A stretch of 64,000 nt of DNA from NCBI GenBank assembly GCA_018268595.1, contig JAFDWH010000013.1, forward strand, positions 124,001 to 188,000, in the 5' to 3' direction. Made by a program: the position numbers and the translations under genes. The first letter of the stretch is position 1. Every line of letters begins with the position of its first letter. This stretch comes from Actinomycetota bacterium (GTDB lineage: Bacteria; Actinomycetota; Thermoleophilia; Solirubrobacterales; Solirubrobacteraceae). Positions 18,720 to 23,097 of this stretch are shown in pieces. The notes beneath the pieces are model-generated. The model was not told where the DNA came from and ran no database searches. It was given only the letters and a program-made list of their open reading frames with translations.

Positions 18720-19742
18720 TTAGGTCGTGCGCTTGCGCTTCGGCGCGGAGCGCGCGTCGAGCTGCAGCTCGCGCTCGGCGCCGGGGAGCCCTTCCTCCAG
18801 CTCGCGGTTGCGCTCGCGCTCGGCGTTCAGCTCCATCCCGAGCAGCAGCGCCAGGTTGGTGATCCACAGCCACACGAGGAAGGCGACGACGCCGCCGAGC
18901 GTCCCGTACGTCTTGTCGTAGGCGCCGAAGTTCGCGACGTAGAGGCCGAACAGCGCCGAGGCGACCACCCACACCACGAGCGCGAGCAGGGCGCCGGCGG
19001 TGACCCACTTGAAGCCGGGCAGCTTCACGTTCGGCGAGGCGTGGAACAGCACGGCGAGCATCAGCAGCACGACGAGGACCATCACGGGCCACTTCGCGAT
19101 GTCCCACGCGGTCGTGGCGGCGCTGCTGATGCCAAGTGGGCCCGCCACCTGGTCGACGACCGGGCCCGTCAGCACGAGCGACAGCGCCAGCAGCGCGAGC
19201 AGCACGACCATCGCGAGCGTGACGAGGATCTGCAGCGGGCGCAGCTTCCAGAACGGCCGTCCCTCGGGCGTCTCGTAGGCGATGTTGGCGGCACGCATGA
19301 ACGCGCCGACGTAGCCGGACGCCGACCACAGCGCGGCCCCGAGCCCCACGACGAACAGCACGCCGGCCGCGCCGCGGTTGGCGGTGATCGATCTGATCGG
19401 GCCGGAGAACGTGTCGGCGGCGGTGCTGGGACCGATCGAGGTGACGATGTCGGTCAGCTTTCTCGTCGTCGTGACGGGATCGCCGAACAGGCCGACGATC
19501 GAGACGAGCGCGATCAGCGCCGGGAACAGCGCGAGCAGGCCGTAGTAGGTGAGCGCCGCCGCCCAGTCGGTCATGCCGTCCTCGCGGAACTCCAGCACGG
19601 TGCGCTTGAGCGTCGGCAGCAGGGCGGTGCGCGCGTCGGTGCCGGTCGGCCGGTAGTCCATGCGGCGGCGCTGCGGGGCGTCGCCCGACGGCTGGGCGCC
19701 GGCGGGGGTCGTCCCCTGCATCTCGGTGTGGTCCATGCGCAT
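18720..19742 (-). CDS. YihY/BrkB family inner-membrane protein
   Basis: 340 aa with about six membrane helices. The family patterns are visible: DGMTDWAAALTYYGLLALFPALIALVS near residue 55, an Ala/Gly-rich central helix pair, and LYVANFGAYDKTYGTLGGVVAFLVWLWITN near residues 265-295. The hydrophilic N-terminus (~40 residues) and the basic C-tail (PKRKR) flank the membrane core. The family was once wrongly called ribonuclease BN; its function is unknown. It is convergent with the upstream gene, with only 3 nt between stops. Confidence 0.88.
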   Translation of the reverse strand: MRMDHTEMQGTTPAGAQPSGDAPQRRRMDYRPTGTDARTALLPTLKRTVLEFREDGMTDWAAALTYYGLLALFPALIALVSIVGLFGDPVTTTRKLTDIVTSIGPSTAADTFSGPIRSITANRGAAGVLFVVGLGAALWSASGYVGAFMRAANIAYETPEGRPFWKLRPLQILVTLAMVVLLALLALSLVLTGPVVDQVAGPLGISSAATTAWDIAKWPVMVLVVLLMLAVLFHASPNVKLPGFKWVTAGALLALVVWVVASALFGLYVANFGAYDKTYGTLGGVVAFLVWLWITNLALLLGMELNAERERNRELEEGLPGAERELQLDARSAPKRKRTT

Positions 19743-19821: not shown

Positions 19822-21444
19822 GTGGAGTACCCGAGCGAGACGTTCACCGAGGCCGAGCGCGCACGACTGGCGCCGCACGTCAGCGATCTCGACGGCCCGG
19901 TGTTCGCGCTGCTCAACCTGCCGGAGACCGTCAAGGGCGCGCTGTTCGCGCGCTACTCGCGCTACCCGGGGACGCTCAAGCGGCTGTTCCTCGACGAGTT
20001 CGCCGACTCGCTGCCCGAGCTGCCGGCGGGCTGGGACACGAGCGGCGAGGGCGAGCGCGCCGCGCAGCTCTACGAGAGAGTCTTCCTCGGCTACGGCGAC
20101 GACTCGGTCGCGCAGCTCGGCGGCGCGCACGTCGCCTGCGAGTGGGTCTCGAACGTGCTGACGAAGCTGCTGCAGCGCCCGCGGCTCGGCGCCTACCTCG
20201 AGCAGTCGACCCGCTACATCGCCTACGACGCGCCGATGGAGGCCGGCTCGGCCCCCGGCGACGGCATGCCGCGCTACCGCTACTACCGCGACGCGGCGCT
20301 CGGCCCGCAGTACGAGCGCGCGCTCGACGCGCTGTTCGACACCTACGCCGCGCTGCTGCCGCGCGTCTCGGCGTGGACGGCCGAGCAGTTCCCGCGCCGC
20401 GACGGCGAGGACGAGCGCGCGCACGCGCGCGCGATCAAGGCGAAGGCGCTCGACCTGCTGCGCGGCCTACTGCCGGCCGCCTCGCTCTCGCACATGGGGA
20501 TCTTCGCCAGCGGCCAGACGTACGAGCAGCTGATCCTGCACCTGCTCGCGCACCCGCTGCCGGAGGCGCAGCGCTACGGCGCGATGATCCTGCGCGCGGT
20601 GCAGGCGACGATCCCCTCGTTCGTGACGCGCGTCGAGCGGCCCGACCGCGGCGGAGCGTGGGTCGAGCACCTGCGCACGCGCGCGGAGGCGGGCGCGGCG
20701 TGGGCGGCGCGCCTGGGGCTCGACGCGAGCGAGGGCGCCGCGGGCGAGCTGCGCCCGTCGGTCGCGCTGCTGCGCCACGACGGCAGCGAGGAGGACCTGC
20801 TCGCCGCGCTGCTGTTCGAGGCGAGCGGCGTGCCGGAGGAGCGCACGCACGCGCGCGTGGCGGCGCTCGGCGCGGACGAGCGGGCCGCCCTGCTGCGTGA
20901 CCTCGTCGGCGCGCGCGAGAACCGCCGCCACCGCCCCGGACGCGGCTTCGAGGCGCTGCGCTATCGCTTCGAGATCGTCTCCGACTACGGCGCGTTCCGC
21001 GACCTGCAGCGCCACCGCATGCTGACGTGCCAGTGGCAGGCGCTCACGCCGCACCTCGGCGCGGAGGTGCCGGAGGAGGTCGAGCTGGCCGGCTGCGGCG
21101 ACGACTACCGCCGCGCGCTGGAGGTCTCGCGCGCGGAGTACGAGCGGCTCGCGGACGCGGGCCTGCGCGAGGCGGCGCCCTACGCCGTCTGCCTCGGCTA
21201 CCGCATCCGCTACGTGCTCGACATGAACGCGCGCGCGGCGATGCAGCTCATCGAGCTGCGCTCCGGGCGCGAGGGCCATCCCTCCTACCGCGCGGTCGCG
21301 CATGCGCTGCACGCCGCGATCGCGGAGGTCCACCCCGCCGTCGCGGCGACGATGACGCACGTCGACCGCGAGACCGAGCCCCGCCTCGAGCGCATCCTGT
21401 CCGAGATGCGCACGCAGGCGCGCCGCGACGCGGCCGGCGCATAA
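19822..21444 (+). CDS. double-length FAD-dependent thymidylate synthase (ThyX) homologue
   Basis: 540 aa, about twice the usual ThyX. The two halves look like an internal duplication. The N-half has EWVSNVLTKLLQRPRLGAYLEQSTRY near residues 110-135, and the C-half has FRDLQRHRMLTCQWQ near 394-408 and MNARAAMQLIELRSG near 470-484. The classic RHRxxSxNxxSxRY signature is thus split: RHR in the C-half and QSTRY in the N-half. It may make dTMP from dUMP with FAD and NADPH, or have diverged from that role. GTG 19822 is chosen by the TAGGGT box. The upstream open frame is a shadow of the YihY gene. Confidence 0.8.
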   Translation: MEYPSETFTEAERARLAPHVSDLDGPVFALLNLPETVKGALFARYSRYPGTLKRLFLDEFADSLPELPAGWDTSGEGERAAQLYERVFLGYGDDSVAQLGGAHVACEWVSNVLTKLLQRPRLGAYLEQSTRYIAYDAPMEAGSAPGDGMPRYRYYRDAALGPQYERALDALFDTYAALLPRVSAWTAEQFPRRDGEDERAHARAIKAKALDLLRGLLPAASLSHMGIFASGQTYEQLILHLLAHPLPEAQRYGAMILRAVQATIPSFVTRVERPDRGGAWVEHLRTRAEAGAAWAARLGLDASEGAAGELRPSVALLRHDGSEEDLLAALLFEASGVPEERTHARVAALGADERAALLRDLVGARENRRHRPGRGFEALRYRFEIVSDYGAFRDLQRHRMLTCQWQALTPHLGAEVPEEVELAGCGDDYRRALEVSRAEYERLADAGLREAAPYAVCLGYRIRYVLDMNARAAMQLIELRSGREGHPSYRAVAHALHAAIAEVHPAVAATMTHVDRETEPRLERILSEMRTQARRDAAGA

Positions 21445-21492: not shown

Positions 21493-23097
21493 ATGTCGTG
21501 GGGGACGACGCGGCGCGTGGGGACGCGCCACGGGGGATCGCGCGCGGACCAGGCGCCGCTGTGGTCGCGCCTGAGCTGGGAGGCGTGGGCGGCGGTCGGC
21601 GTGACCGCGCTGTTCATAGCGATCACGTGCTGGTGGCTGGCGGCCGACGACGGCATGCCGTACGGCGACGCCGCCGAACACCTCTACAACGCGTTCTACT
21701 TCCACGACCAGCTCGCGCACGGCGACCTGCTCGGACCGTTCAGCTACAGATCGGTCTATCCGCCGCTCACGTCGTTCGTCGGCGGCCTGGCGATCTTCTT
21801 CGGGCCGCGCACGACGGCGACGCCGATCGTCGCGCAGAACCTCCTCTACGCGTCGCTGCTGGCGTTCGGCTGCTACCGCGTCGCGCAGCTCTCCTACGGC
21901 GCGCTGGCGGGGTTGCTGGCGGTCGTCTTCGCGCTCGGCTCGCCGCTGATCGCGGAGCAGTTCCACGTCTTCATGCTCGACCCGCCGGAGGCGGCGCTCG
22001 TCGCCGTGACGGCGTGGCTGCTGCTGTCGAGCGAGCGGCTGCGCCGCGTCGACCTGGCCGCCGCGGCCGGCCTCGTCACCGGGCTCGGGATCGTCACGAA
22101 GCAGACGTTCCCGCTCTACGTCGCGGGGCTGCTCGCCGTCCTGCTGCTGCGCGAGCGCGGCTGGCGCAACGGGCGCGGCCTCGGCGCCTACCTGCTCGTC
22201 GCGCTCGTCGTCGCCGCGCCGTGGTTCCTCGCGCATGCGGGCGAACTCGGCGCGATAGCGAGAAACGCGAGCGCGAACGGGACGGTGCCGCCGCTCGCGA
22301 GACCGCCGGTCGTCTCGCTGGAGAACCTGGAGTGGTACGGCTGGGCGCTCGCCAACTCGACGCTGTTCCTGCCGCTGCTGCTGTTCGCGCTGACGGGCGT
22401 CGTGTGGGCCGTCGTGGACGTCGTGCGCCGCACGCGCCCGCTCGGCTGGACGCCCGAGCTGCTCGGCGGCCTCGGCCTCGCGTGGGTCGCGATCACGCTG
22501 ATGCCGCACCACGACCTGCGCTACACGATCCCGCTCGTCCCCTACCTGGCCGTGCTGGGAACGGCCTGGATCCCGCGGCTGGCGGTGCCGTGGCGCCACG
22601 CGGCGATCGGCTGCCTCGCGGCCGCGACGGTCGCCGCCACGCTCGGCGCGACGTTCGGCGTCGGGTCGAAGCGGCCAGAGCCGCTGCCGGCGGTGCAGGA
22701 AGCCCCCGACGGCGTCGGCGTCCCGCCGCTGCACACGCTCACGCTGCAGGCCGGCAGCAACTACATGGTCTCCGGCCCGCGCCATGGCGACGACGTGCTG
22801 CCGCTGCTGAAGGCGCTGCGCGCGGACGGCGTCACCGAAGTGCTGTGGATCCCGCAGCAGGCGCCGCCGTGGAGCCGCGACTTCAACATCCGCGGCCTGC
22901 TCGCCTACGCGAGAGTCGCGCGGCTGCACGTGCACAGCGGCGCGATAGACCTCTCGCACCTCGAAGCGCGCGAGGCGCTGCTGCTGCGTGGGCGCGGCCG
23001 CCGCTACGCCGGCGCCCCGGCGTGCGAGCGGCTGCCGGACGGGACCGGCGTGTGGGTGCAGGTCGGCGGGCAGACGGTCTGCCCGCGACACAGGTAG
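21493..23097 (+). CDS. membrane glycosyltransferase, GT39/ArnT-like
   Basis: 534 aa. Polytopic protein with about 10 helices and the layout of dolichyl-phosphate-mannose or ArnT-type glycosyltransferases (PMT_2). After the first helix comes an outward loop with DDGMPYGDAAEHLYNA, the expected acidic catalytic site. PPLTSFVGG and DPPEAALVA follow, and a periplasmic soluble C-domain of about 130 residues ends the protein. It likely transfers a sugar from a polyprenyl-phosphate donor to an envelope acceptor. Donor and acceptor cannot be told from the sequence. No pathway partners are adjacent. Confidence 0.78.
   Translation: MSWGTTRRVGTRHGGSRADQAPLWSRLSWEAWAAVGVTALFIAITCWWLAADDGMPYGDAAEHLYNAFYFHDQLAHGDLLGPFSYRSVYPPLTSFVGGLAIFFGPRTTATPIVAQNLLYASLLAFGCYRVAQLSYGALAGLLAVVFALGSPLIAEQFHVFMLDPPEAALVAVTAWLLLSSERLRRVDLAAAAGLVTGLGIVTKQTFPLYVAGLLAVLLLRERGWRNGRGLGAYLLVALVVAAPWFLAHAGELGAIARNASANGTVPPLARPPVVSLENLEWYGWALANSTLFLPLLLFALTGVVWAVVDVVRRTRPLGWTPELLGGLGLAWVAITLMPHHDLRYTIPLVPYLAVLGTAWIPRLAVPWRHAAIGCLAAATVAATLGATFGVGSKRPEPLPAVQEAPDGVGVPPLHTLTLQAGSNYMVSGPRHGDDVLPLLKALRADGVTEVLWIPQQAPPWSRDFNIRGLLAYARVARLHVHSGAIDLSHLEAREALLLRGRGRRYAGAPACERLPDGTGVWVQVGGQTVCPRHR

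What the first reader, a model, noticed from the sequence alone, without database searches (positions are those of the whole stretch)
19822..21444. Double-length ThyX homologue with the ThyX motif split between halves
Classic ThyX has RHRxxSxNxxSxRY in one stretch. Here the N-half keeps ...EQSTRY and the C-half keeps QRHRM, so a single active site may be built from both halves of one chain, as canonical sites are built from different subunits. That would be an internally duplicated, sub-functionalised form. dcd in the same window makes its presumed precursor.
Basis: partly seen in the sequence, partly recalled or inferred. Interest (0 to 1): 0.5.

Follow-up and report, generated by a model that had tools for sequence, protein, structure and literature searches.

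The report
Two-domain thymidylate synthase, shared active site
This gene encodes a double-length version of the enzyme that makes the DNA building block dTMP, in which each half has kept a different part of the active site, so that neither half should work without the other.

Summary
Confirmed: 19822-21444 (+) encodes 540 aa with two ThyX (Thy1) domains. The N-half keeps RPRx7STRY; the C-half keeps RHR and Arg174 but has lost the SxRY loop. In solved ThyX, SxRY and RHR/Arg174 are supplied to one site by different subunits (PMC6514825), so the split follows a natural subunit interface. It holds in 66 of 66 non-redundant double-length homologues from Actinomycetota, plasmids and phages, apparently one ancient family. 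Both halves are predicted to have the ThyX fold. The genome has no ThyA, DHFR or other ThyX. In 197 phylum genomes, 0 of 53 with the double carry canonical ThyX, against 92 of 144 without it. Best reading: a working FAD-dependent thymidylate synthase whose sites each combine an N-half and a C-half, two live and two dead per four domains. Whether the halves pair within or between chains is open. The duplication is in print since 2009 as uncharacterised (PMC3224940); ten searches did not show the split site. New variant of a known enzyme; no activity shown.

The parts
19822..21444 (+). double-length thyX gene, 540 aa plus stop (GTG start)
   Evidence: start supported by 96 of 111 homologues
19822..20712 (+). 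N-half ThyX domain (residues 1-297)
   Evidence: profile-profile match to canonical ThyX E 9.2e-15; AF2 model pLDDT 89.9, Z 12.7, rmsd 3.6 over 194 residues to M. tuberculosis ThyX 3gwc
19957..19959 (+). Ser46 in ARYSR, proposed equivalent of T. maritima Ser30 of the folate loop; equivalence read by eye, as the T. maritima row used does not cover it
   Evidence: 65 of 66 homologues
20176..20217 (+). N-half motif RPRLGAYLEQSTRY (119-132): Ser129, Arg131, Tyr132 = T. maritima Ser88, Arg90, Tyr91 (dUMP side and tyrosine lid)
   Evidence: S 66/66, R 66/66, Y 65/66; absent from the C-half
20461..20463 (+). Arg214 = T. maritima Arg147
   Evidence: 66/66 in N-halves; mostly P or Q in C-halves
20746..21384 (+). 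C-half ThyX domain (residues 309-521)
   Evidence: Pfam best stretch 369-506; profile match E 2.2e-12; Z 16.6, rmsd 2.5 over 193 residues to T. maritima ThyX 5ior
21010..21018 (+). C-half Arg397-His398-Arg399 = RHR 78-80 (FAD side)
   Evidence: R 66/66, H 66/66, R 63/66
21226..21261 (+). C-half NARAAMQLIELR: Asn469, Arg471, Arg480 = T. maritima Asn163, Arg165, Arg174
   Evidence: N 51/66, R 56/66, R 66/66

Best explanation
The gene encodes the organism's only detectable thymidylate synthase: an FAD-dependent (ThyX-type) enzyme made of two fused ThyX domains. In canonical ThyX four identical subunits form four sites, each lined by three subunits. Here the two domains have specialised. The N-half plays the subunit that offers the dUMP loop and lid (Ser129, Arg131, Tyr132) and the Arg147 equivalent (Arg214). 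The C-half plays the subunit that grips FAD with RHR (397-399) and contacts dUMP with Arg480. A dimer of double chains would thus form a pseudo-tetramer with two complete sites at N-half/C-half interfaces and two dead ones. Shown here: two domains, complementary conservation, a tree that fits one origin, lone-gene status. Inferred: catalysis, oligomer, number of sites. Not settled: whether the two halves of a site belong to one chain, and which domain acts as the third subunit.
For: Two Thy1 domains. Each half matches canonical ThyX profiles (E 9.2e-15 and 2.2e-12) but hardly the other half (0.039), as expected if they diverged in complementary ways. In 66 of 66 homologues under 80% identity to one another, E127, S129, R131 and R214 (N-half) and R397, H398, R480 and R490 (C-half) do not vary. 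In a merged profile alignment Ser88/Arg90 fall in a gap in 65 of 66 C-halves, and 0 of 66 N-halves have the RHR histidine; 14 of 14 canonical rows hold all these residues in one domain. Where the C-half lost R165 (6 of 66, neither R nor K), the N-half has R in 5. Literature geometry: M. tuberculosis dUMP is bound by Arg95 and Arg199 of subunit A and Arg87, Ser105, Arg107 and the Tyr108 lid of subunit C (PMC6514825, section 3.1 read); PBCV-1 Arg182 monomer A, Ser88/Gln89 monomer B (PMC3498832, passages). Own genome: no ThyA, no other ThyX, no DHFR. Phylum sample of 197: canonical ThyX in 0 of 53 double genomes against 92 of 144 others; order sample of 61: 0 of 43 against 12 of 18. Models.
Against: No activity, FAD binding or oligomer was tested. 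The equivalog model TIGR02170 scores 39.7 bits, below its cut-off of 87.9. The His53 position is Asp in this lineage (52 of 66 N-halves; His in 13). R165 and N163 sit in the C-half here but in the N-half of several phage doubles, so the third-subunit role is not uniform. In one alignment placement 13 of 66 N-halves have Arg at position 174 (0 of 66 ungapped), and 49 of 66 N-halves keep the R78 equivalent, so the N-half is not wholly stripped. The two alignments disagree over the C-half's H53-E58 segment (pairs E377 with E58; gaps it). The exclusivity figures ignore shared ancestry; 3 genomes hold the double plus some ThyA (G006; fragments in G181 and G243).
Confidence: 0.8

Rival explanations
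1. One half is the enzyme and the other only a scaffold; the catalytic half forms conventional sites by pairing with its like across chains.
For: The C-half has the stronger Pfam match and the better structural match.
Against: Ser88/Arg90 fall in a gap in 65 of 66 C-halves and Tyr91 in 62 of 66, and the N-half lacks the RHR histidine and a secure Arg174; no half holds a complete set, and residues are invariant in both halves.
Confidence: 0.07
2. It is a ThyX-fold methylase for another substrate (as PolB, a UMP/dUMP methylase), not the cell's thymidylate synthase.
For: PolB structures 4p5a/4p5b are among the matches and the equivalog cut-off is missed.
Against: No other ThyA or ThyX in this genome and near-complete exclusion of canonical ThyX and ThyA in 197 and 61 genomes.
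Confidence: 0.06
3. The protein has decayed and the organism lives on thymidine salvage.
For: Key motif residues are missing from each half taken alone.
Against: Active-site positions without exception in 66 of 66 homologues over a phylum, plasmids and phages.
Confidence: 0.03
4. The composite sites are right, but a complete set is reached only between two different chains (domain-swapped), not within one. A sub-case of the best explanation, scored apart.
For: Canonical sites need three subunits; nothing here fixes the partner.
Against: AF2 gives pTM 0.88 for the whole single chain, suggesting a defined contact between the two halves, but I could not inspect which interface it is.
Confidence: 0.35

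Closest known systems
Domain-duplicated ThyX of Chloroflexi (Valas and Bourne 2009, PMC3224940; passages seen)
   Same: A ThyX with a domain duplication that is the only thymidylate synthase of its hosts; [quoted passage not shown]
   Different: The passage says nothing of which half keeps which residue, nor of composite sites. I fetched no Chloroflexi sequence, so identity with this family is likely but untested.
Canonical ThyX / FDTS (T. maritima TM0449, M. tuberculosis ThyX)
   Same: Fold of each half; the summed active-site residues; expected FAD, dUMP and folate chemistry.
   Different: There every subunit holds the whole RHRx7SxRY plus Arg174 set in one domain (14 of 14 rows); here the set is shared out over two fused domains.
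phrog_36506 'thymidylate synthase' (Microcystis phage Ma-LMM01 gp020)
   Same: Double length (491 aa), same split (L145 is one of the 66 rows); BFVD match E 3.9e-17 over 545 columns; the window protein matches the family.
   Different: Only about 22% identical; phage-borne. In print as a ThyX homologue (PMC5780444, passage).

Membership tests
Thy1 / ThyX superfamily (PF02511) | Match above Pfam's gathering score | tested here: met
   100.7 bits against 24.8, two stretches
Thy1 / ThyX superfamily (PF02511) | ThyX fold | tested here: met
   predicted models: C-half Z 16.6, N-half Z 12.7
Canonical ThyX equivalog (TIGR02170) | Score above the curated cut-off | tested here: not met
   39.7 bits against 87.9
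Canonical ThyX equivalog (TIGR02170) | Complete RHRx7SxRY in one domain | tested here: not met
   N-half RPRx7SxRY; C-half RHR without SxRY
Canonical ThyX equivalog (TIGR02170) | Homotetramer of single-domain subunits with four sites | not testable with these tools
   the chain has two domains; the oligomer is unknown
Canonical ThyX equivalog (TIGR02170) | FAD- and folate-dependent methylation of dUMP | not testable with these tools
   no assay; supported indirectly by lone-gene status
Domain-duplicated ThyX (PMC3224940) | Two ThyX domains in one chain | tested here: met
Domain-duplicated ThyX (PMC3224940) | Same clade as the Chloroflexi proteins | not tested
   no Chloroflexi sequence was fetched
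PolB UMP/dUMP methylase | UMP as substrate, antibiotic gene cluster (recalled) | not tested
   flanking genes are BrkB-type, PMT_2-type and acetyl-CoA synthetase-like; substrate unknown

The most novel reading that the evidence does not exclude
An ancient, widespread and uncharacterised thymidylate synthase class in which a homotetramer with four identical sites became an obligately asymmetric pseudo-tetramer: one domain type is the dUMP-loop donor, the other the flavin and arginine donor, two sites are live and two abolished. One fusion would underlie versions in Actinomycetota, in Firmicutes and Bacteroidota plasmids and in large phages.
Probability: 0.65. Interest if true: 0.6.

Novelty: new variant of a known kind. 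Interest (0 to 1): 0.52.

Why it matters
Thymidylate synthesis is essential, and ThyX is pursued as an antibacterial target. A form with complementary half-sites would be a natural experiment in how a symmetric multi-subunit active site divides its labour after duplication. It would let single residues on either side of one site be changed without touching the symmetry mates, which is hard in a homotetramer whose sites share three subunits, and it gives many soil bacteria and phages with no other recognised thymidylate synthase a concrete enzyme to test.

Tried and rejected
Rejected: 'not real or frameshifted': open frame, and 39 other genomes hold an uninterrupted match over most of the length at 64-83% identity. 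'Chance motif'. 'Decayed copy beside a canonical enzyme'. 'Operon with dcd': about 40 kb apart.

Led nowhere: paper searches listed only papers that do not bear on a split site; TOPSAN mentions TM0449, and its 'C-terminal half' passage is about another protein. The Leduc 2004 paper was not held. The window protein finds no phage record by tblastn; a viral-contig homologue as query finds 16. I recall (no call) that Chlamydia ThyX may also be double-length; not tested. That the complementary split is not in print rests only.

Rows dropped or limits: of the 43 double genomes, 31 proteins were aligned (30 loci plus L047); the others were not fetched, or broken (L048) or a repeat (L049). The 129 doubles contain near-copies; counts use the 66 under 80% identity. 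L137 lacks part of its N-terminus but is counted. L149-L166 were not added. The canonical set is 14 rows, 11 of them from the window's own order. Of 93 genomes one (G114) was a hit inside its own double gene and was moved. 31 of 197 genomes had no hit by any of the three searches at the strict cut-offs; in the order sample G036 and G057 had none of the three but carry a third, atypical ThyX-like protein.

Full report
What is there. The frame 19822-21444 (+) gives 540 aa. It lies after a divergent BrkB-type membrane protein gene (18720-19742, -) and before a PMT_2-type glycosyltransferase gene (21493-23097, +). Pfam finds Thy1 twice. The NCBIfam equivalog for ThyX stays under its cut-off (39.7 against 87.9 bits), which already says that this is not a canonical ThyX.

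The split. In T. maritima numbering, the N-half keeps Ser88, Arg90, Tyr91 and Arg147 (window S129, R131, Y132, R214); the C-half keeps Arg78-His79-Arg80, Asn163, Arg165 and Arg174 (R397-H398-R399, N469, R471, R480). Over 66 homologues under 80% identity to one another, drawn from 129, S129, R131 and R214 and R397, H398 and R480 never vary; over all 129 they do not vary either. Ser88 and Arg90 fall in a gap in 65 of 66 C-halves, and the RHR histidine is P, G, N or another residue, never H, in the 66 N-halves. By contrast 14 of 14 canonical rows have the full set in one domain (11 of these rows are from the same order). Arg165 is almost reciprocal: Q in the N-half and R in the C-half in 52 of 66; where the C-half has neither R nor K (6 of 66) the N-half has R in 5.

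Results that blur the picture. 49 of 66 N-halves keep an Arg at position 78, and 13 of 66 have an Arg that one alignment places at 174 (0 of 66 in the ungapped reading). The His53 place is Asp in 52 of 66 N-halves and His in 13. The C-half stretch facing His53-Glu58 is aligned differently by the two methods. The Ser46/Ser30 equivalence is my reading of the sequence; the T. maritima row used does not cover that loop.

Why the split makes sense. A review (PMC6514825, section 3.1 read) gives the M. tuberculosis site as RHR 95-97 and Arg199 of subunit A, Ser71 and Arg190 of subunit B, and Arg87, Ser105, Arg107 and the lid Tyr108 of subunit C. In PBCV-1 ThyX Arg182 is from monomer A and Ser88/Gln89 from monomer B (PMC3498832, passages). 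In T. maritima the flavin-stacking His53 sits on a third monomer (PMC11940539, section 10 read). So the N-half holds the Ser, Arg and Tyr that subunit C supplies, and the C-half the RHR and the last Arg that subunit A supplies. If N-half met only N-half across that interface, no complete site could form. Which domain is subunit B is unclear: Ser71's place is conserved in the N-half (S95, 65 of 66), Arg190's place in the C-half of this lineage.

Structure. AlphaFold2 with an alignment of 35 sequences gave pLDDT 89.3 and pTM 0.88 for the whole chain. The C-half aligns with T. maritima ThyX at Z 16.6, rmsd 2.5, 193 residues. The N-half modelled alone (pLDDT 89.9) aligns with M. tuberculosis ThyX at Z 12.7, rmsd 3.6, 194 residues. 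No solved structure matched by sequence is of double length: the 12 profile matches are 217-258 aa. No coordinates were available, so the contact between halves was not examined.

Origin and spread. In a tree of 24 N-halves, 24 C-halves and 7 canonical rows, each group is one side of a branch (SH-aLRT 96, 95 and 89, short search, some long branches), which fits one ancient duplication or fusion. The genome scan found 201 relatives; the best 80 carry mostly Solirubrobacterales, Thermoleophilia or unspecific Actinomycetota titles. A two-domain form is also on plasmids of Miltoncostaea, Euzebya, Parabacteroides, Paenibacillus and Bacillus, in 9 viral contigs at 24-43% identity, and in phages such as Ma-LMM01 and Vibrio and Tunturiibacter phages.

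Function by genome content. The window's genome (98.88% complete, 31 contigs) has no other Thy1 match, no ThyA and no DHFR, one dcd in the window and a dUTPase homologue on another contig. In 61 relatives the double gene is in 43; canonical ThyX (G056 included) is in 0 of these 43 and 12 of the other 18, ThyA in 1 of 43 and 7 of 18. In 197 phylum genomes the double is in 53 (57 matches less 4 weak ones that hit canonical genes); canonical ThyX in 0 of 53 and 92 of 144; ThyA at E up to 1e-10 in 2 of 53, both fragmentary, and 28 of 144. Fisher's p for canonical ThyX is 7e-19, but it treats genomes as independent, which they are not. This pattern is what replacement of one thymidylate synthase by another looks like.

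What is known. Valas and Bourne (2009, PMC3224940, passages) wrote that Chloroflexi other than Dehalococcoides have only a ThyX with a domain duplication that 'has not been characterized'. Ma-LMM01 gp020 is in print as a ThyX homologue (PMC5780444, passage). Ten searches of an open-licence library showed no description of the complementary split; subscription papers are mostly not held, so this is weak evidence of absence.

Verdict. A real, functional-looking, domain-duplicated ThyX with a shared-out active site. That it works as a thymidylate synthase I put at about 0.9, that its sites are composite at about 0.85, and that two of four sites are dead at about 0.75. None of this was assayed.

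Noticed in passing
L046 518-2551 (-): In an order-level relative (G056) the canonical ThyX is interrupted just before THELVRHR by a long in-frame insert (CYDADTEVLTSDGWK ... VVSGN) that looks like an intein.
   Followed up: no
L044 1288-2970 (+), L045 616-1656 (-): Two relatives (G036, G057) have neither double, canonical ThyX nor ThyA but an atypical single ThyX-like protein with NTHRVFSRNSASSRAIP.
   Followed up: no
L139, L141, L147: Bacillus and Paenibacillus plasmid doubles have RHN in place of RHR in the C-half and lie near DUF1257/DUF2997 and helicase genes, perhaps phage-like plasmids.
   Followed up: partly
L146 144-2967; L143 402-2994: Doubles lie close to dcd on an Euzebya plasmid and next to a dCMP deaminase gene in phage Tunturi_5.
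   Followed up: no
G243 C39:1968-3886: ThyA match in two pieces about 1 kb apart in a genome that also holds the double ThyX.
   Followed up: no
L067, L075, L078: Records titled Bifidobacterium breve hold doubles 69-73% identical to this one, so the titles look mislabelled.
   Followed up: no
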